DNA from: a virus
IMG/VR virus record: IMGVR_UViG_3300037091_000151
Coordinates: 1 to 35,267 of that record
Direction: 5' to 3' (one strand)
DNA: 35,267 nucleotides
Below are positions 1 through 35,267 of this stretch, in pieces. The stretch's first letter is position 1; each line of letters starts with the position of its first letter. Under the pieces are notes generated by a model that saw only the letters and a list, made by a program, of their open reading frames with translations, was not told the DNA's origin and searched no databases. A program made the translations under genes and the position numbers.

Positions 1-238
1 GATCCGGCTCCGGCAGGAATGATAGGAATAAATGTAAATATTTTGTCAACAGATAATCCTTTTGTTGTTAGACAAAAAGCCATATTTGCTGTTAATTCTA
101 CATATTTTGGTATACCAGATTTTAGGGGACAATTTTTAAGGGGATTGGATATACCAAACAATTATGATTTGGGAACAAGATTTAGTCTAAACAATATTCA
201 AACTGGCGGTTTAAATTTAGGCACTATGGAATTTGATG
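1..238. repeat. Terminal overlap, left copy
   Basis: Identical to 35031-35267 except for one extra G and one C/A difference in the stretch around base 126. This copy keeps the collar reading frame open, so it is the correct version. It is best read as the assembly overlap of a circular or circularly permuted genome of about 35,030 bp. A true short terminal repeat is less likely because it would cut the fibre gene. Confidence 0.9.
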
Positions 239-963: not shown

Positions 964-3429
964 ATGGCAACTAAAAAATTTAGTCAATTTACAGATGGTG
1001 GTTCATTATTATCAACAGATACGGTTGTTGGTTTAAGATCGGGAGTGAATTATAAATTTAGTCCACAAACCGGCCAGCTACTTTCTTCAAATAATTTAAG
1101 CGATGTTGCAAATACACAAACATCAAGAAATAATTTGAGTGTTGCTAAAAGATCATCAGGCTCTGGTTCTCCACAGGGATTAGTGGCTGGTGAACTTAGT
1201 GATACATATATAGATACGACAGCCCCTACAAATAAATTCTACATATGTATAGTTGCAGGAAATTCTGTATCTACTGTGTGGCAATTACAGTCTGATGTCA
1301 ATAATGCTCTTCTAATTCCAAACAATTTATCAGATGTGGCGAATCCTGTTACATCACTTTCAAATATTGGTGGTCAACCTATAAATATTTTAGGCACGGG
1401 TAATCCCAATGGAGCACAAGCTGGAACAGCAGGTATAAATATATACTATGATTCTGCATCTCAGCAGTATTGGAATTGTACAACAACCGGCACATCTTCA
1501 ACAGCGGTATGGACTAGTTCTAGAGATATTTTCCCAGTTAATTATATTGATTTTATTGCGCCGCCCGTCCAGCTTGAAGTTAACAATATCTATCTAGCTA
1601 GAGTAACTAGTCCGTCACCTGCTAATGCAATTATGCCAGTCGCTCCCAGTTTGGGAGATTTATTGATTATCTATGCGACTGGTGCGGCTGGTGTCAACAT
1701 TACAATCGGTACTGCAAATGCTATCAGAATAAGTAACACATCGGTTTCTTCAACATTTTTCATGCCTGCCAATTCTTCGATTGTTTTAAGATGCGTCGTG
1801 GATGTGGGTGGTGGGCAATGGCGTGCAGAATCAATTGTAGGAAATTTAACTATAGACGGATCAATTCAACAAAATGCAATTGACAATGTTCAACAGCCAT
1901 TAAATTTAACAGGTGCTGTAGACCCTAATGGTAATGTCGCAGGAACTGCTGGAATAAACTTTTATTTTAATACAGTAACGCTTCAAATGTGGCGTTGCAT
2001 ATCTACTGGAAATTCTGCAACTGCTGTCTGGACTCCAATCACGCAAGAATCAAATATTTTACCTGCAAATACAGTATATTTTTCTGCATTAATTGGAAGT
2101 GACACATTAGGAAATGGTTCTGAATCATTCCCTTTTGCCACATATAACTTTGCAGCTACATATGCCGCAGGATTAGCAACATCTACCAATCAATATGCAG
2201 TATTCCCGATGGGTCAAGAAATTGTATCTGGCGATATTGTTATTTATCCATTTGTTAATTTTTCAGGATTAAATTCAGATACAAATTCATTGAGCACAAC
2301 TGGTAATTTAGTAGTTGATGCTTCATGGGGAACAACACCAAACTCATCTTTTTCATGTGTTAATGTTGGGTTAGATATACAGGCCGGGGTAAATATAATT
2401 TTGCCAGCACCACAAGGTGCGCAATTTTTATTTATAAATTCTCCATTTTCTAATTCGACACCGTCTATTACTTCCGTTGGTACAGACTCAACATCATTTG
2501 AATTAATGGTATTTATCAATGAAGTTTCTATTCAGACGAGACCCGATATAACAGCGACTAATTTTATAACAGCAGTAGATAATTCTGGCGGCGGAAATAT
2601 TACTTCAATAAACAACTCATCTAATAAGCCAAGTATTCTGGTATTTCTTGGTAACTCATTATTGACAAACTCGGGAACAACTACAATTCAAACTGTAGTG
2701 CCAGGTCAAGCATCTTTATTTTTAGCAACTGCGACACTTGTAAGTAATTTAGTTTTGGATGGCACTAATTCTATAGCTGAAGTTGATTCAGTAAGTTATC
2801 CATCATCTGTTAGTTTCTTGAATGGGGCTACATTTACAAATGTAAATTTGGTGACATTGTCAGATGGAGTATCTGCTAACGATAATTTTACTCCAGCAAA
2901 TTATACTTTACCTGTCGCAACCTTATATCCTTCTTCAAGTGTTACTAATAATTTAGTAGGTATTGATAATGAGTTGGGAATTATAAAAACTCCTTCAGTT
3001 GTGCAAGCAGATAGACATGGCGCTGCAACACCAATTTTAGTAACTGGATTTTTGATTTGCACAGATGTCAGAGAAGATACAAACAGCTTATACAATAATT
3101 CGACGGGTACATTTACTGCTGACAAAGATGGTTTGTATGAGTTTAATTATGAAGTTCATACAAGCGGTACAGGAACTTCAGTACCATTAAACACTGTATA
3201 TTATATTGATGCAGCTTTTTACAAAAATGGTGCTTTTTTAGATGTTCAATATTCATCAAATAGAAACACAGGAATATTAAATGGTGTTATTGTATCAACA
3301 AATAATCATGGACACGCAATTATAAGATTAGTTGCTGGAGATACTATAAATGTAAATGTAGTACAAAATGGAAATATACCATTAACATTATTAAGTGCAA
3401 ATTTTTCAGCGAAATATATAAGAAACTAA
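964..3429 (+). CDS. Tail fibre/spike-like protein with C1q-like C-terminal domain
   Basis: 821 aa. The N-terminal third has fibre-type motifs (NNLSDVANTQTSRNNL, NNLSDVANPVTS). It also has three diverged copies of a roughly 40-residue unit of the form G-x-PxG-x-AG....Y.C...G.S.TAVW, at about residues 66-107, 142-185 and 315-355. The middle is a long Asn/Ser/Thr-rich beta region. The last ~115 residues read as a C1q/TNF-like jelly roll: an NNSTGTFTADKDGLYEFNYEV start, then a GHAIIRLVAGDTINVNV strand pair and a final FSAKYI strand. C1q-like tips on phage fibres are trimeric binding heads. It follows the collar fibre and is probably a second receptor-binding protein. The ribosome site is weak (AAGAGA). 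Confidence 0.75.
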   Translation: MATKKFSQFTDGGSLLSTDTVVGLRSGVNYKFSPQTGQLLSSNNLSDVANTQTSRNNLSVAKRSSGSGSPQGLVAGELSDTYIDTTAPTNKFYICIVAGNSVSTVWQLQSDVNNALLIPNNLSDVANPVTSLSNIGGQPINILGTGNPNGAQAGTAGINIYYDSASQQYWNCTTTGTSSTAVWTSSRDIFPVNYIDFIAPPVQLEVNNIYLARVTSPSPANAIMPVAPSLGDLLIIYATGAAGVNITIGTANAIRISNTSVSSTFFMPANSSIVLRCVVDVGGGQWRAESIVGNLTIDGSIQQNAIDNVQQPLNLTGAVDPNGNVAGTAGINFYFNTVTLQMWRCISTGNSATAVWTPITQESNILPANTVYFSALIGSDTLGNGSESFPFATYNFAATYAAGLATSTNQYAVFPMGQEIVSGDIVIYPFVNFSGLNSDTNSLSTTGNLVVDASWGTTPNSSFSCVNVGLDIQAGVNIILPAPQGAQFLFINSPFSNSTPSITSVGTDSTSFELMVFINEVSIQTRPDITATNFITAVDNSGGGNITSINNSSNKPSILVFLGNSLLTNSGTTTIQTVVPGQASLFLATATLVSNLVLDGTNSIAEVDSVSYPSSVSFLNGATFTNVNLVTLSDGVSANDNFTPANYTLPVATLYPSSSVTNNLVGIDNELGIIKTPSVVQADRHGAATPILVTGFLICTDVREDTNSLYNNSTGTFTADKDGLYEFNYEVHTSGTGTSVPLNTVYYIDAAFYKNGAFLDVQYSSNRNTGILNGVIVSTNNHGHAIIRLVAGDTINVNVVQNGNIPLTLLSANFSAKYIRN

Positions 3430-7363: not shown

Positions 7364-7450
7364 TGGTGGGGCGAGAAGGATTCGAACCTACGAAGCCGTT
7401 AAGACCACAGATTTACAGTCTGCTTCCGTTGACCGCTTGGATATCACCCC
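7364..7450 (-). tRNA. tRNA-Tyr (anticodon GTA), CCA encoded
   Basis: A full class II cloverleaf reads on the minus strand. The acceptor is GGGGTGA paired with TCGCCCC. The D-arm is TCC/GGA with AAGCGGTCAAC. The anticodon arm GCAGA-CTGTAAA-TCTGT gives GTA. There is a long variable arm as expected for bacterial Tyr. The T-arm is GTAGG-TTCGAAT-CCTTC, with one T-T mismatch, and ACCA is encoded at the end. It lies in the 120-base gap between the Gp157-like and DUF669 genes and must be cut from their transcript. Confidence 0.93.
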
Positions 7451-9204: not shown

Positions 9205-9230
9205 CTTAATTCTCCTATTATTAATAAGAT

Positions 9231-9325
9231 GTTATGGGGTGGGATTCGAACCCACGGAATATCATTGTCTTAAGCTGATATCCGACGAACATGACGCCGA
9301 CTTAAACCACTCATCAACCCATAAC
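9231..9325 (-). tRNA. tRNA-like gene, class II, isotype uncertain
   Basis: The ends are strong. The acceptor helix GTTATGGG/CCCATAAC is 8 bp, the T-arm is perfect (GTGGG-TTCGAAT-CCCAC), and the D-arm (GAT-GAGTGGTTTAA-GTC) has the serine/leucine form. The middle is not canonical. One candidate anticodon arm is CGGCG-TCATGTT-CGTCG, giving ATG with C at position 33. The next hairpin (GGATATCA / TGATATTCC) is either a very long variable arm or carries a CTTAAGA loop that would read Leu(TAA). An extra G-1:C73 pair is a tRNA-His mark. CCA is not encoded. Real tRNA-type transcript, decoding unclear. Confidence 0.7.
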
Positions 9326-9328
9326 AAG

Positions 9329-9466
9329 TGAGGTTTCTGAGAGCCATATACTTGAGTCTATCAAACTCGAAATCCCCTCAGAACGACCCGGTTTTTACCC
9401 GGTTATGTCGATAAAACATTATCTTCTTACGCGGTGTGTTTTCATATTTGACTAACTGAAACCTCA
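9329..9466 (-). ncRNA. Structured RNA upstream of the tRNA-like gene
   Basis: The two ends pair as TGAGGTTTC / GAAACCTCA (9 bp). Inside are GATAA-TGTT-TTATC, then CGAC...CCGG-GTAAAAA-CCGG-GTCG, then TTCTGAG ... CTCAGAA enclosing GAGT-TTGATAG-ACTC. The 5' end lies where transcription from the promoter at 9472-9499 should start, and the 3' end lies 3 bases from the tRNA, where RNase P would cut. No ORF covers it. It matches no RNA family I recognise. The helices are read by eye. Confidence 0.5.
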
Positions 9467-9471
9467 TGGGC

Positions 9472-9499
9472 ATGATAACATAAAAAAACATAAGTGCAA
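9472..9499 (-). promoter_or_regulatory. Leftward promoter of the 9.4-4.1 kb unit
   Basis: On the minus strand TTGCAC, 16 bases, TATCAT. The expected start (about 9465) is the first base of the structured RNA's closing helix. The TTGCAC box with an upstream AATAAAAG-type stretch is shared with the promoters at 12416, 13889 and 17577. Confidence 0.55.
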
Positions 9500-9563: not shown

Positions 9564-9608
9564 ATACATCTTCTTATTCAGATAAACAAGGGAGTGGTTA
9601 AAATCAAG

Positions 9609-10286
9609 ATGAGAACTATAAATATAGAGATTTTAAGAGATGAAATGATTTTTGAAGCAGAGATGTATTGCAAGCTACCTTTGCGATTAGCGTTTATTGG
9701 ACTTCTGCTATATGCAGATAAAGAAGGTCGATTCCTATGGAAACCTAGTCGAATTAAATTGGACGTGTTGCCGTATGATTCTGTTGATATGTTTGATGTT
9801 CTAGAAGAGTTGTTCTTTTACAAGATCATTCAGAAATATACGGACAGCACAGAAATATATGGTCACATAGTCAACTGGGAGAAATATCATATAGCAGATG
9901 ACACAGAAATAGAAAGTGAGCTGCCGTCTCCTGAGCAATGTCAATATATGGAAGAAGATGTAAAAATAAAAGAACCAAAAATTTCAGATCATGAAGAAGT
10001 ATTGCAGTATTTGATTGATAAATCTGGAACCAAGTTTCAATTTGTAGCATCAAATTTTAAGCCCATAATTTCTATACTGAAAGATAAAGGCATAACGGTT
10101 GATACATGCAAAAAAGTTATTGATCTAAAATGCGAGCAGTGGGGTGATGATGAAAATATGTGTAATTATTTGAGGCCATCAACTTTATTTAATAGGTCTA
10201 AGTTTTATGAGTATTTGGCTTTTGTGGATAAGCCGAAACAAAAAGTAAAAACTTCGAGTGATAGAATATTAGAAATGCTTAAATAA
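9609..10286 (+). CDS. Phage replication initiator/organiser with winged helix
   Basis: 225 aa from the ATG at 9609 (MRTINIEI, the usual family start); a GTG at 9594 abuts its ribosome site and is less likely. Residues ~15-95 follow the phage replisome-organiser pattern: LRLAFIGLLLYADKEGR, KPSRIKLDVLPYD, then LEELFFYKIIQKY and IYGHIVNWEKYH. This is a DnaD/lambda-O-type winged helix that binds the origin. The C-terminus (ILKDKGITVDTCKKVIDLK, then CNYLRPSTLFNRSKFYEYL) fits the conserved phage C-terminal domain seen in DnaD-like organisers. It is the first gene of the rightward unit, with a possible loader next. Confidence 0.82.
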   Translation: MRTINIEILRDEMIFEAEMYCKLPLRLAFIGLLLYADKEGRFLWKPSRIKLDVLPYDSVDMFDVLEELFFYKIIQKYTDSTEIYGHIVNWEKYHIADDTEIESELPSPEQCQYMEEDVKIKEPKISDHEEVLQYLIDKSGTKFQFVASNFKPIISILKDKGITVDTCKKVIDLKCEQWGDDENMCNYLRPSTLFNRSKFYEYLAFVDKPKQKVKTSSDRILEMLK

Positions 10287-10296
10287 AGGAGATTTT

Positions 10297-10977
10297 ATGA
10301 AATTAGGAGAAAAAGAAAGCCATATAGTTATTATTGAAAAGTATAAGATGATGATTAACAAAATCACTTCTTATTCTGTAAGTGATGAGTGGATAGCTGA
10401 TAAAATAAAAGCTTTAATTGATTTAATGCCGTCATGTAATCTCGATGTTTTTATTCAGGTTTGTGAAGATTGGGTTAAGAAAGAAGATTCAATGCCAACA
10501 CCCAAACAATTGAGTTTTAAATGTTTAAAGTTCGTTAAAGATATTGAGAAACAAGAAGCATTAAAAAATCCAAAAGTATGCTACGAAATAGAGTTCAAGA
10601 AAAAAAACGGATTAGAGTTGCTAGAATTTGAAGAAGACATTTGCAAATTGAGGGAACCTATAGATCAGCACAGTTGCAAACATAATAGTTTCGTTGCAAT
10701 ATGCAACTTCCATGTTTTGATGGACAAAGAACAAAACGGAAGAGACTGGAATGGATACAAAGGAGTTTTCACATTTTGCAAAAATAAAGTTATGTCATAT
10801 GCGCAATCAGAAATATTTATGCATAAATATTTAAGAGCAGATATGAATATAAAACGCCAGATGCTTGAGTCGCTAGATGCTGAACATCGGGCAGCAGTGA
10901 AAACATATGAGAATAATTACTATAAAGAGCATGACTTAGAATCATCTTTGGCCTCCGTTTTTAAGCAAATTGAATAG
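10297..10977 (+). CDS. Possible helicase-loader-like replication protein
   Basis: 226 aa. The N-terminal half is helical with a segment CNLDVFIQVCEDWVKKEDSMPTPKQLSF that recalls the small helical domain of lambda P-type loaders (helices followed by xPTPxQL). The middle has Cys/His residues (DQHSCKHN, VAICNFH). No Walker motif is present, so it is not a DnaC-type ATPase. It follows the initiator by 10 bp with an AAAGGAG site, the order initiator-loader seen in lambda-like phages. Function is inferred mainly from position; sequence support is weak. Confidence 0.5.
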   Translation: MKLGEKESHIVIIEKYKMMINKITSYSVSDEWIADKIKALIDLMPSCNLDVFIQVCEDWVKKEDSMPTPKQLSFKCLKFVKDIEKQEALKNPKVCYEIEFKKKNGLELLEFEEDICKLREPIDQHSCKHNSFVAICNFHVLMDKEQNGRDWNGYKGVFTFCKNKVMSYAQSEIFMHKYLRADMNIKRQMLESLDAEHRAAVKTYENNYYKEHDLESSLASVFKQIE

Positions 10978-11035
10978 TATTGCTTAATTATTTTGGTTAC
11001 AGAATTTAATGATTATAGCATAATATACATAATAT

Positions 11036-11062
11036 CAGTATTTTCCATTATGGAAATATCTG
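11036..11062 (+). other. Hairpin ahead of the tRNA-like RNA
   Basis: CAG-TATTT(T)CCA-TTA-TGGAAATA-TCTG folds into a stem with one bulge. It lies 12 bases before the tRNA-like element in the 254-base gap between the loader-like gene and the next gene, and may be part of the same RNA. Confidence 0.4.
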
Positions 11063-11073
11063 ATTATAAATAT

Positions 11074-11210
11074 GAATACTATAGTTTAAAGCGTGAAGAT
11101 GCCGGGCCTATTCATATAGTTGACGTCAATTATATGCCATGCTTACTCGGGTCGAGGGCAAAAACACTTTCTAGAGAGAGATGTAGGGTCGAGCCTACTG
11201 GTATTCACCA
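11074..11210 (+). ncRNA. tRNA-like structured RNA ending in ACCA
   Basis: The ends form a 7-bp acceptor-like helix (GAATACT with GGTATTC) followed by an encoded ACCA. A T-arm-like hairpin sits just inside it (GTAGG-GTCGAG-CCTAC). The interior is too long (137 bases in all) for a tRNA. It has AAGCGTG paired with CATGCTT enclosing a 12-bp palindrome (11113-11136), then CTCG-GGT-CGAG, then CTTTC-TAGA-GAGAG. GGGTCGAG occurs twice. The locus is richer in G+C than its surroundings, and the only ORF across it has no family features. Possible tRNA mimic; function unknown. Confidence 0.5.
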
Positions 11211-11231
11211 ATTTAAAAAGACAAATAAAAT

Positions 11232-11489
11232 ATGAAAACTGAATTTGAGCAATTACAAGAACTTGCAGATAAAATTGAATCCGGATATTACTTGATGCCT
11301 GGTAGTAAAGAATTGTTGATTGCGGATTTAGAATATCTATGCAAAGTTTATAAGAAATCAGGATATGTTGACGGTTCTGATTTTATGTTCAAAAATTATA
11401 GATCAATGTTTATGTCACATAATGAATCTATAGGTTCTGAATGTAAAAAAATAATTAGCGAAAATTTGTCGGATTTATACGAAAAATGA
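11232..11489 (+). CDS. Small helical hypothetical protein
   Basis: 85 aa, acidic and helical (FEQLQELADKIESGY, ELLIADLEYLCKVYKKSGY). Not recognised. Its stop overlaps the ATG of the VRR-NUC gene (ATGA), so it is coupled to the nuclease and may serve the same replication or recombination step. No strong ribosome site is visible; translation may depend on the RNA structure just upstream. Confidence 0.6.
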   Translation: MKTEFEQLQELADKIESGYYLMPGSKELLIADLEYLCKVYKKSGYVDGSDFMFKNYRSMFMSHNESIGSECKKIISENLSDLYEK

Positions 11490-11872
11490 AATCATTAAAA
11501 TTACCATGCGCTACAGAAGCGCAAGAAGGAAAACTATTAAAAAGTTGGGCTGACTATCATCCGATTTGCAAGAACCACTTAATACATATCGCTAATGAGT
11601 CCAAGACGTCATGGCAGAATGGTAAGAGCCTAAAGGATCAAGGTAAAAAAAAAGGGGTGAGCGATTACTTTCTAGCATATCCTGCTGGTGGAAAAAGTGG
11701 ATTATGGATTGAGCTTAAGCGGTCTAACAAATCGCTGTCTAGATTAAGCGCAGAGCAGGCAGAATGGCTAGCTACGTGCGAGAGGGTAGGATATAGCACA
11801 TCTGTGGCTTACGGTGCAGATGAGGCCATTCAGAAGATAAATGAATACTTATCTGTTAAATGCTGTAAGTGA
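11486..11872 (+). CDS. VRR-NUC domain nuclease
   Basis: 128 aa, a single-domain phage VRR-NUC protein. Landmarks in order: the early Glu in ATEAQEGKLL, the IANESK/WQNGKSLKDQGKKKGVSD block with the catalytic Asp, the WIELKRSNK motif (ExK of the PD-(D/E)XK core), and LSAEQAEWLATCERVGYSTSVAYGADEAIQKINEYL. Such enzymes are structure-specific nucleases, thought to resolve Holliday junctions or clear branched DNA before packaging. It is last in the replication unit, followed by a terminator 12 bases on. Confidence 0.88.
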   Translation: MKSLKLPCATEAQEGKLLKSWADYHPICKNHLIHIANESKTSWQNGKSLKDQGKKKGVSDYFLAYPAGGKSGLWIELKRSNKSLSRLSAEQAEWLATCERVGYSTSVAYGADEAIQKINEYLSVKCCK

Positions 11873-14850: not shown

Positions 14851-15096
14851 TTATTGCGTCGGCGTCGTAATATTATGCAGTTCATCCAACGTTATTGCTG
14901 GAACTTCTCCATATCTACCTTCCTCTGTATATATATACCCAGACTTAATCCATTCTACTATTCCTGAAACTTTAATTTTTACGTACAGATTACCGTCGTA
15001 ATCAATAATTTTTATTGATCGAACAGGCGCTTCTTGATTTTCGGTATCACCCAACCTTTTAAATGGATAATCAGTCCAGTATTTTTTAAGTTTCAT
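14851..15096 (-). CDS. Small hypothetical protein
   Basis: 81 aa. The middle part is beta-rich (VRSIKIIDYDGNLYVKIKVS, then GYIYTEEGRYGEVPAITL). No family recognised. It overlaps the end of the ankyrin gene by 4 bases and has GAGGA before its ATG. It begins with MKLKK, as does the ankyrin protein, so the two starts may share ancestry. Confidence 0.58.
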   Translation of the reverse strand: MKLKKYWTDYPFKRLGDTENQEAPVRSIKIIDYDGNLYVKIKVSGIVEWIKSGYIYTEEGRYGEVPAITLDELHNITTPTQ

Positions 15097-15494
15097 TTTG
15101 TTAATCCTCTTAAATATTTTGCAATCGATTTAAATCCGTATTCTTCTGCATAATCTAGAGCTGTTCTTTTCGTATAATCTTTTATAGAAATATCTGCACC
15201 ATGATCGCATAACTCTCTAACAATTTTTAAGTGTCCTTTCATTGCTGCAAAAATTAATGCGGTTCTATCTTCTGCGGTAATAGAATCAATTTTTGGATTG
15301 AAAGACAGTATTATATTTAAAAGTTTTATATTTCCAATTTCAGACGCAATAATTAATGGAGTAGTGCCAAATAATATTTTTTTATCATAATTTGCGCCAT
15401 TTTTTAAAAGTAAATATATGCAAGATAAGTTAAGCTTGTTTTCATAAAGCATCAACTCTAATGCTTCACTTAATTCTGATTTTTTTAGTTTCAT
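15093..15494 (-). CDS. Ankyrin-repeat protein
   Basis: 133 aa. Residues ~25-130 hold three to four ankyrin repeats: FGTTPLIIASEIGNIKLLNIIL, then DRTALIFAAMKGHLKIVRELCDHGADI, then KRTALDYAEEYGFKSIAKYL. Conserved TPL/TAL turns and GA-D-type hairpins are plain. Ankyrin repeats bind other proteins and have no catalysis. They are uncommon in phages and frequent in bacteria that live with eukaryotes. Here it may block or redirect a host protein. It sits among other tiny leftward genes and is probably early. Confidence 0.88.
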   Translation of the reverse strand: MKLKKSELSEALELMLYENKLNLSCIYLLLKNGANYDKKILFGTTPLIIASEIGNIKLLNIILSFNPKIDSITAEDRTALIFAAMKGHLKIVRELCDHGADISIKDYTKRTALDYAEEYGFKSIAKYLRGLTK

Positions 15495-33050: not shown

Positions 33051-35267
33051 ATGCTAAATTCTCGTTATGTGATAGCTCCAAGTTTAGAAGAATACTTTGT
33101 AGATAAAACAAGTGGATTGCCATTAGCTGGTGGTATGGTATTTTTCTATTCAGATATAGACCGCTCTACTTTAAAACCAATATTTAAATTAAGTGGATCA
33201 CCACCAAATTATTCTTATACTGAGCTTCCCAATCCATCGACTCTTAGCGCTGTTGGAACATTTCAAGATGAGTTGGGAAATAATGTATTACCTTATTACT
33301 ATCCATATGATGCGGACGGTAATATAGAATTATATTACATAGCAGTATTCAGTTCTACTGGTGTTCCACAATTCACTAGAGAAGCATTTCCTAATATATC
33401 AGCAGGCGGTGGTTCTGGTGGACAATCTGGACAATTAAACTTTATACCAAATGGCCAATTTTTACTTCATAACAATATAGTTGCACAACCAATAAATAAT
33501 ATATTAGCAGGACAAATAACAGGACCGTTAACAGAATTAGCGCCAGGCGGTTTTTATTTTGTAAGACCAAATACAACAACTTCAACAGATATCGTAACAT
33601 TTCCTGTATACGGTCAATTTGTTAGTAACCCCACTGCTAGTCCCAGATATTCAGCACAAATTCAATGTACGTCACCTAATTCTTCAGATAATCTTAAAGA
33701 TTTAAGAATTCGGTTTGGAGATGTAAATAAATTTGCTGCTGATATAACTATTCAAGATCAATATACATTTGGATTTTCTGGTATAACTGTTGATAGTGGA
33801 TCATTTTTTGTTGATATGGAAATTGTTAAGTTTTATGGTACTGGTGGTGCTACATCTCCAACAGAGACTATAACTATAACTAGTTTTGAGATAACAGATC
33901 AGCAGCAATTTTTTCAAGTTCCTTTTGTATTTCCTTCTAATGAAGGGAAAAATATAGGGACAAATGACGATAGTTATGTAGATATATCAATTTCATTCCC
34001 AAAAAATATAAGTTTTGGCTGCAAATTAACTAATTTCTGTATGTATCTGGGTAATGAGACAATATTGGAATTTAATCAAACTACAGATAAAGATTTTTCA
34101 GCAAGAAGTATGGTTTTAAATACACCGAATCATGATGGATATGATATAGGATTACCTGTTGTTGCCACAAGATATGGACTTTTTTCAGATAATAGTGTGG
34201 TTGGTGAAATTGTTGCTTCTGTTTCTGTAAATCCTCCAATTTATGCTCACTTATGTGATGGTTCTCAATTTTTGACTTCTGGTTATCAAGATAACGGCGT
34301 TCCAAATAAAAGATTATTTAATGCGTTGTATAATATTAATGGTACTGAAATTACAACATATGGAACGGGAAAATTTTTTGCAACATTAGCAGTATCTGCA
34401 TCAGCAATAGCAAGTCCAAGTGGAAACTCTATACTTTCTAATAATTCTGTAGGTGTAGTTAATGCTGTTGCAGATGGATTAACTCCTACCGGAATTGTAT
34501 TTACTAGAACAGCTACAGGACAAGCATCATCTTACGGTGTTACAAGTTTTTGTTTATATAATGGCCCACTTGGAGCAACTAATAATTTTATAGTATGGAA
34601 TAATTCTGCAAATTCTGGTTCAGGTGTAAGTCCTGGAACAAGTGGTTTTACTGTTACATTAATTAGAGCTGGTAATTCAGTTTTGAGAAATATAACTCAA
34701 GTAACAGTTAATGTTGCTGTTTCAACTCTTGCAGGAAAATATTTTCAATTTTCAACTCCTACTCTATATTACGTATGGTTTACTGTTGACGGTGTTGGTG
34801 TTGATCCAGCACCTGGAGGAATAGGAATAAAAATAAATTTATTAAGTACAGATGTTACGTTTGCAGGAATATCTGAAAAGATAGGTATTGCATTGAATGG
34901 TGGTGAATTAACTTCTTTCATTTTCCCAGATGGATCAACAATAATGCCTGGGTCATATTTTACATTTCAAACGGCTGGTGGCCCACAAAATCTGTATTAT
35001 GTATGGTTTACTGTTAATGGAACAGGAACTGATCCGGCTCCGGCAGGAATGATAGGAATAAATGTAAATATTTTGTCAACAGATAATCCTTTTGTTGTTA
35101 GACAAAAAGCCATATTTGCTGTTAATTCTACATATTTTGGTATACCAGATTTTAGGGAAAATTTTTAAGGGGATTGGATATACCAAACAATTATGATTTG
35201 GGAACAAGATTTAGTCTAAACAATATTCAAACTGGCGGTTTAAATTTAGGCACTATGGAATTTGATG
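33051..35267 (+). CDS. Tail fibre with interrupted tail-collar domain, N-terminal part
   Basis: Continues at base 1 (joined protein ~796 aa). The N-terminus is a podophage head-binding or neck domain (SLEEYFVDKTSGLPLAGGMV, YYYPYDADGNIELYYIAVF). Collar half one is at ~397-437 (IYAHLCDGSQFL ... GTGKFF). The second half (IPDFRGQFLRG) follows ~260 residues later. Between them lie a beta region and two copies of a ~77-aa unit beginning LYYVWFTV-(D/N)-G-x-G-x-DPAP near 571 and 648. The apparent stop at 35166-35168 is caused by one missing G in the terminal overlap. AAAGGAAA precedes the ATG. Confidence 0.8.
35031..35267. repeat. Terminal overlap, right copy with frameshift
   Basis: Repeats 1-238 with one G lost and one C replaced by A near 35157, which creates a false stop in the fibre gene. 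Contig ends are error-prone, so this copy is probably the faulty one. Confidence 0.9.

What the first reader, a model, noticed from the sequence alone, without database searches (positions are those of the whole stretch)
11074..11210. 137-nt tRNA mimic with acceptor helix, T-arm-like hairpin and ACCA
The 3' end copies a tRNA (7-bp acceptor, T-arm, ACCA) but the interior holds four other helices, one being a 12-bp palindrome. It sits in the only gap of the replication operon. Candidate roles: decoy for tRNA-cleaving defence nucleases, translation control of the next gene, or RNA-processing signal.
Basis: partly seen in the sequence, partly recalled or inferred. Interest (0 to 1): 0.66.

Follow-up and report, generated by a model that had tools for sequence, protein, structure and literature searches.

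The report
Oversized tRNA-like phage RNA
A phage carries, in a gap between replication genes, a 137-base RNA whose two ends look like a tRNA but whose middle cannot read codons; a second phage keeps the same RNA right beside a real tRNA gene, so it is probably a genuine small phage RNA made through the tRNA pathway, comparable to a T4 RNA whose job is still unknown.

Summary
Window 11074-11210 has a tRNA-type acceptor helix, a 5-bp T-arm-like hairpin (6-nt loop) and an encoded ACCA around a 106-nt interior with no anticodon arm. A strict scan for this layout over 83 phage loci (about 0.9 Mb) gave seven normal tRNAs and two oversized hits, the window and an unrelated 158-nt element in L037, against none in shuffles. 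Only one homolog was found, in another IMG/VR phage (138 nt, 83% identical), 5 nt downstream of a tRNA-Asn gene. There the neighbouring genes differ, the overlapping ORF is broken by stops, and the acceptor helix and T-arm each show a compensatory pair change. It is therefore a conserved RNA, not a protein and not a leader of the next gene. Rfam, ARAGORN, GenBank phages and plasmids give no match. The closest known thing is T4 species 1 RNA (rnaC): same size, tRNA-array setting and general layout, but no detectable homology; its function is unknown. Best reading: a non-decoding stable RNA matured like a tRNA. Decoy action against tRNA-attacking defences is possible but untested. The interior fold is only partly settled because there are just two sequences.

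The parts
11074..11210 (+). whole tRNA-like RNA (137 nt)
   Evidence: homolog L002:3454-3591, 138 nt, 83% identical
11074..11081 (+). 5' half of acceptor helix
   Evidence: pairs with 11199-11206; one compensatory pair, one half change, one break in the homolog
11084..11165 (+). long irregular arm in place of D and anticodon arms (tentative)
   Evidence: RNAalifold helices 11-14/89-92, 18-19/85-86, 25-31/75-80, 33-34/68-69; two compensatory pairs, but a rival pairing exists
11113..11136 (+).
   Evidence: two one-sided changes, both keep the RNA pair; one of them breaks the DNA palindrome
11169..11180 (+). short hairpin in the place of a variable arm (tentative)
   Evidence: TTCT/AGAG in both sequences, no variation to test it
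11183..11198 (+). T-arm-like hairpin, 5 bp, loop GTCGAG
   Evidence: compensatory G-C to A-T in the homolog
11199..11206 (+). 3' half of acceptor helix
   Evidence: sequence
11207..11210 (+). encoded ACCA 3' end
   Evidence: identical in the homolog, followed by ATTT in both
10993..11235 (+). overlapping 80-aa ORF, not a gene
   Evidence: same frame holds several stops in L002; no Pfam or PHROG match
9594..10977 (+). upstream genes: replication initiator (Phg_2220_C) and a 226-aa unknown protein
   Evidence: both present in L002
11232..11872 (+). downstream genes: 85-aa unknown ORF (not shared with L002) and VRR-NUC nuclease (shared)

Best explanation
A small, stable, non-coding phage RNA that is made and matured like a tRNA but does not decode. 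It would be transcribed with the early replication genes (and, in the sister phage, with tRNA-Asn), cut at its 5' end by RNase P because it offers an acceptor/T-arm coaxial stack and RCCA, and trimmed at its 3' end to the encoded CCA. The tRNA ends give processing and stability. The conserved 106-nt interior, built as a long arm plus a short hairpin where the D, anticodon and variable arms should be, would carry the function by binding a protein or RNA during infection. Shown: conservation as RNA, tRNA-type ends, tRNA-gene linkage in one phage, no decoding arm. Inferred: transcription, processing, stability. The partner of the interior is not known.
For: Homolog with the same ends and length (138 nt) 5 nt downstream of a tRNA-Asn gene on the same strand. 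Conserved although both flanks changed and the downstream ORFs are unrelated. ORF broken. In the helices named from the window alone, 5 changed pairs are kept (2 compensatory) and 1 broken, P=0.004 with substitutions relocated at random; only 3 of 500 column shuffles fold as well as the consensus. Sliding the 3' partners by 1-3 columns destroys pairing, 98.8% to 36-45%. A covariance model of the RNA run on the T4 tRNA region ranks true tRNAs first and second. T4 rnaC shows that phages do encode such RNAs, expressed in infection (PMC9697503). RNase P cleavage depending on an RCCA 3' end is reported in PMC12710915 (abstract).
Against: Only two independent sequences. Pair 5-130 of the acceptor breaks in the homolog. 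The homolog's predicted minimum-energy fold does not form the full acceptor. T-loop is 6 nt and lacks T54; no D-loop GG. Many C-to-T and G-to-A changes between the two could make chance 'compensations' in the interior; shuffling partners reaches the observed count 34 of 500 times. No expression data; no clear promoter above background.
Confidence: 0.6

Rival explanations
1. A decoy (sponge) for enzymes that grip the top half of tRNA, above all tRNA-cleaving defence nucleases: the acceptor, T-arm and CCA are kept, the anticodon arm is gone, so a tail- or top-half-reading nuclease is occupied without loss of a useful tRNA.
For: Exactly the top half and CCA are kept. [quoted passage not shown] Both phages carry tRNA-Tyr, the tRNA destroyed by retron-Eco7 and supplied by T5-like phages (PMC11555353). 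Other non-decoding tRNA-like RNAs occur in like early modules.
Against: A pure top-half decoy would not need a conserved 106-nt interior. T-loop lacks T54 and has 6 nt. No host or defence system is known for this phage. Nothing was tested.
Confidence: 0.2
2. A processing and punctuation signal: the tRNA-like fold only serves to let RNase P cut the polycistronic early transcript between the 226-aa gene and the following genes.
For: It lies in an operon between coding genes in both phages; tRNA folds do punctuate transcripts (established for mitochondrial transcripts; own knowledge).
Against: In L002 a genuine tRNA-Asn already sits 5 nt upstream and would do this. The interior is conserved although punctuation needs only the top half.
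Confidence: 0.13
3. An antisense regulator whose interior pairs with phage or host mRNAs, with tRNA ends for stability.
For: Conserved purine-rich AGAGAGAGAT and other apparently unpaired stretches.
Against: Longest complement to its own genome is 12 nt in both phages, the same as shuffled RNA (mean 11.3, up to 15). Host unknown, so host targets could not be tested.
Confidence: 0.15
4. Cis-control of the next gene (riboswitch, attenuator or translation switch).
For: Ends 21 nt before the ATG of the next ORF in the window.
Against: The next ORFs are unrelated in the two phages, and a gene-independent CCA end is kept.
Confidence: 0.04
5. A decaying tRNA or insertion-bearing tRNA without function.
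For: A 6-nt T-loop and lost D/anticodon arms look degenerate.
Against: About 83% identity over the whole length between phages whose flanks no longer align, nearly equal length, and compensatory changes at both ends.
Confidence: 0.06
6. A miniature tmRNA-like RNA with its own tag frame.
For: tRNA-like ends without an anticodon arm, as in tmRNA.
Against: ARAGORN and Rfam find no tmRNA; no reading frame is kept open in both phages.
Confidence: 0.02

Closest known systems
Bacteriophage T4 species 1 RNA (rnaC, misc_RNA T4s001, 139 nt)
   Same: Phage-encoded; nearly the same length; tRNA acceptor and T-arm ends; one long arm plus a short hairpin instead of D, anticodon and variable arms; A-rich stretch before that hairpin; sits among tRNA genes in T-even phages.
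   Different: No detectable homology: the rnaC model does not find the window RNA and the window model finds rnaC only at noise level (10.7 bits, below real tRNAs). rnaC has a canonical 7-nt TTCGAAT loop, no CCA encoded at the 3' end, a 10-bp variable hairpin with a CGUCAA loop, and belongs to very different phages. Function of rnaC is unknown (PMC9697503).
Class II tRNA
   Same: Acceptor helix, T-arm-like hairpin, encoded NCCA, tRNA-gene neighbour in one phage, extra length between the arms.
   Different: No D-loop GG, no anticodon arm, T-loop 6 nt without T54; 137 nt; missed by ARAGORN and by Rfam RF00005.
tmRNA (SsrA)
   Same: tRNA-like ends without an anticodon stem.
   Different: No tag frame, much shorter, no Rfam or ARAGORN match.
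Phage tRNAs that counter tRNA-cleaving defences (T5-like tRNA-Tyr against retron-Eco7; PMC11555353)
   Same: Phage RNA of tRNA shape; these phages also carry a tRNA-Tyr.
   Different: Those are decoding tRNAs that refill the pool; this RNA cannot decode.

Membership tests
tRNA (Rfam RF00005) | Match to the tRNA covariance model or ARAGORN | tested here: not met
   No hit at 11074-11210 at gathering score or E up to 1
tRNA (Rfam RF00005) | Anticodon arm with 7-nt loop and U33 | tested here: not met
   No such arm in the alignment or folds
tRNA (Rfam RF00005) | 7-bp acceptor helix, 5-bp T-stem, NCCA end | tested here: met
   Sequence and scan; T-loop is 6 nt, not 7
T4 species 1 RNA (rnaC) | Match to a covariance model built from T-even rnaC sequences | tested here: not met
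T4 species 1 RNA (rnaC) | About 140 nt, acceptor/T-arm ends, long arm plus short hairpin inside | tested here: inconclusive
   Length and ends met; the interior arm rests on two sequences with a rival pairing
T4 species 1 RNA (rnaC) | Encoded beside tRNA genes | tested here: met
   Met in the homolog, 5 nt after tRNA-Asn; in the window itself no tRNA adjoins
T4 species 1 RNA (rnaC) | Accumulates as a stable RNA in infection | not testable with these tools
   no expression data
tmRNA | Tag reading frame and tmRNA model match | tested here: not met
Decoy against tRNA-cleaving defence | Binds a defence nuclease or spares tRNAs from it | not testable with these tools
   needs experiment; host unknown

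The most novel reading that the evidence does not exclude
Phage early modules repeatedly carry oversized, non-decoding tRNA-like RNAs (this family; the 158-nt L037 element; the 97-nt L042/L045 family; T4 rnaC) that arose independently and act as RNA counter-defences by occupying enzymes that recognise the acceptor/T-arm/CCA top half of tRNA, while the interior tunes the target.
Probability: 0.15. Interest if true: 0.85.

Novelty: new variant of a known kind. Interest (0 to 1): 0.58.

Why it matters
The T4 stable RNAs of unknown function are an old puzzle, still listed as such in 2022 (PMC9697503). Finding unrelated RNAs of the same general build in other phages suggests a recurring kind of phage RNA rather than a T4 oddity, and gives a small set of elements to test together. 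tRNA cleavage is now known as a common antiphage strategy, including removal of the CCA tail, for which no viral escape was known to its discoverers (PMC12851939), so a tRNA mimic that keeps just the top half is a sensible candidate to test.

Tried and rejected
Protein-coding reading: rejected, stops in the homolog. Next-gene leader: disfavoured. Mini-ORFs inside the RNA: not kept. tmRNA, riboswitch or other Rfam family: none. Antisense to own genome: no excess over shuffles. Homology to T4 rnaC: not detected either way. More homologs: exact and gapped patterns in IMG/VR gave only one independent phage; L004-L007 and L016-L031 did not have the tRNA-like layout and were judged chance matches. 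Neighbour-protein searches gave the same phage and a 4.3-kb fragment that is identical where they overlap and stops short of the RNA. A search through 80 Sak4-neighbour loci found none (only a weak 13-bit hit that turned out to be a different tRNA-like RNA in L042). GenBank phages and plasmids: none. The genome collection scan found only a 28% match to the upstream protein. Relatives could not be drawn for the window because it is a virus record. Interior pairing was not resolved: structures A and B have near-equal energies in the homolog (-18.6 and -19.2).

Full report
What is there. The window is a 35,267-base virus record with a terminase, major head protein, Sak4-like annealing protein, Gp157-like protein, replication initiator and VRR-NUC nuclease, so a tailed phage. 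Its first 238 bases recur at its end at 99% identity, which suggests a complete genome. The element at 11074-11210 lies in the only gap of the rightward gene run 9594-11872. GAATACT pairs with GGTATTC, followed by ACCA; just inside is GTAGG-GTCGAG-CCTAC. A strict rule (7-bp acceptor, 5-bp T-stem, [TG]TCRA loop, NCCA) over 83 loci, about 0.9 Mb on both strands, found nine elements: seven of normal tRNA size, the window RNA, and a 158-nt element in L037. Five shuffled sets gave none. A looser rule gives 0.027 hits per random 35-kb window.

A homolog. A search with the VRR-NUC protein brought in one relative, IMGVR_UViG_3300050821_005480. It carries the same RNA at L002:3454-3591, 138 nt and 83% identical, 5 nt after a tRNA-Asn gene on the same strand. 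The window terminase finds no match in that 41-kb record, so the RNA goes with the early region rather than with one head module. Upstream the window has 96 nt of AT-rich sequence where L002 has a further ORF and tRNA-Asn. Downstream the two short ORFs show no similarity. The 80-aa ORF across the element is interrupted by several stops in L002. The conserved unit is thus the RNA.

Structure. Between the two sequences there are 23 substitutions and one indel. In the three helices named from the window alone (acceptor, T-arm, palindrome hairpin), two changes are compensatory, three are one-sided and keep the pair, and one breaks it; relocating the same substitutions at random gives as many compensatory pairs with as few breaks in 0.4% of trials. 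One of the hairpin changes breaks the DNA palindrome but keeps a G-U pair, which points to RNA rather than to a DNA-binding site. The consensus fold scores z = -2.9 against column shuffles, 3 of 500 as good. Sliding the 3' partners drops pairing from 98.8% to 36-45%. The interior is less sure: RNAalifold proposes a long arm (11084-11165) with two compensatory pairs, but a second pairing uses the same changed column 85, and both have similar energies. Many changes are C-to-T or G-to-A, which makes chance compensation easier. The interior helices are therefore tentative.

tRNA-likeness. A covariance model of the pair (R1), run over the T4 tRNA region, has true tRNA genes (Leu, Thr) as its two best matches, with T4 rnaC fifth. 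There is no anticodon arm, no D-loop GG, and the T-loop has six bases without T54, so decoding is very unlikely.

Comparison with known RNAs. T4 species 1 RNA (rnaC) is 139 nt, sits in the T4 tRNA cluster, is found in 718 phage records and in several T-even relatives lies beside tRNA-Trp, -Gly or -Met genes. Its consensus (five sequences, 14 pairs with compensatory changes) is acceptor, one long arm, A-rich linker, short hairpin, T-arm: the same general plan. A model of rnaC does not detect the window RNA, so likeness of build is claimed and not common descent. [quoted passage not shown]

A wider pattern. L037, the closest other Sak4 neighbour, carries a 158-nt tRNA-like RNA with AGGTAGG/CCTACCT, a canonical T-arm and GCCA. 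L042 and L045 share a 97-nt tRNA-like RNA, in L042 right after the SSB gene, with two compensatory pairs, one of them in the acceptor. The window and L002 also share a class II tRNA-like gene with an aberrant anticodon arm. Non-decoding tRNA-like RNAs may thus be a recurring ingredient of such early modules. This is a lead from a handful of cases, not a survey.

Mechanism. The ends, the encoded CCA and the tRNA-Asn neighbour make tRNA-type maturation the most likely route (inferred). A conserved interior argues that it is more than a punctuation mark. Decoy action against tRNA-attacking defence is plausible because the part kept is the part that Cas12a3 grips (PMC12851939), and because the phages also carry tRNA-Tyr, the target of retron-Eco7 (PMC11555353); none of this was tested. 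No antisense target in the phage's own genome stands out.

Verdict. Observation confirmed; tRNA-mimic reading supported; roles open. Confidence is limited by having two homologs and no expression data.

Noticed in passing
L037:9846-10003 (+): 158-nt oversized tRNA-like RNA: 7-bp acceptor AGGTAGG/CCTACCT, canonical T-arm GCTGG-TTCGAAT-CCAGC, GCCA end, D-loop-like TTGGTAA, about 100 nt of other helices inside. No phage record covers it as a whole; only its 3' part resembles phage tRNAs.
   Followed up: partly
L042:2967-3063 and L045:9272-9369 (+): 97-nt tRNA-like RNA shared by two phages (in L042 in the gap after the SSB gene); conserved 12-nt loop CAACATAAGAAC where the anticodon loop should be; compensatory changes in acceptor and D-arm-like stem.
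   Followed up: partly
window 9230-9325 (-); L002 1243-1343 (-): Class II tRNA-like gene with good acceptor, variable arm and T-arm but aberrant anticodon arm (window loop TCATGTT without U33; L002 a 10-bp stem with 8-nt loop). No encoded CCA.
   Followed up: partly
window 9329-9472 (-); L002 about 1350-1418 (-): Leader at the start of the leftward early operon, closed by a 9-bp helix TGAGGTTTC/GAAACCTCA; about 138 nt in the window, about 70 nt in L002, right before the class II tRNA-like gene and just after a TTGCAC...TATNAT promoter-like site.
   Followed up: no
window 7364-7450 (-): Normal tRNA-Tyr(GTA) gene with encoded CCA, shared with L002's phage.
   Followed up: no
window 1-238 and 35031-35267: Direct end repeat of about 238 bases, 99% identical, suggesting a complete genome.
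   Followed up: no
window 15093-15494 (-): Protein that looks ankyrin-repeat-like by eye (not searched); unusual for a phage and a possible hint of a host that lives with eukaryotes.
   Followed up: no
window 11025-11073 (+): 24-nt imperfect inverted repeat (71%) directly upstream of the RNA, where the sister phage has tRNA-Asn.
   Followed up: no
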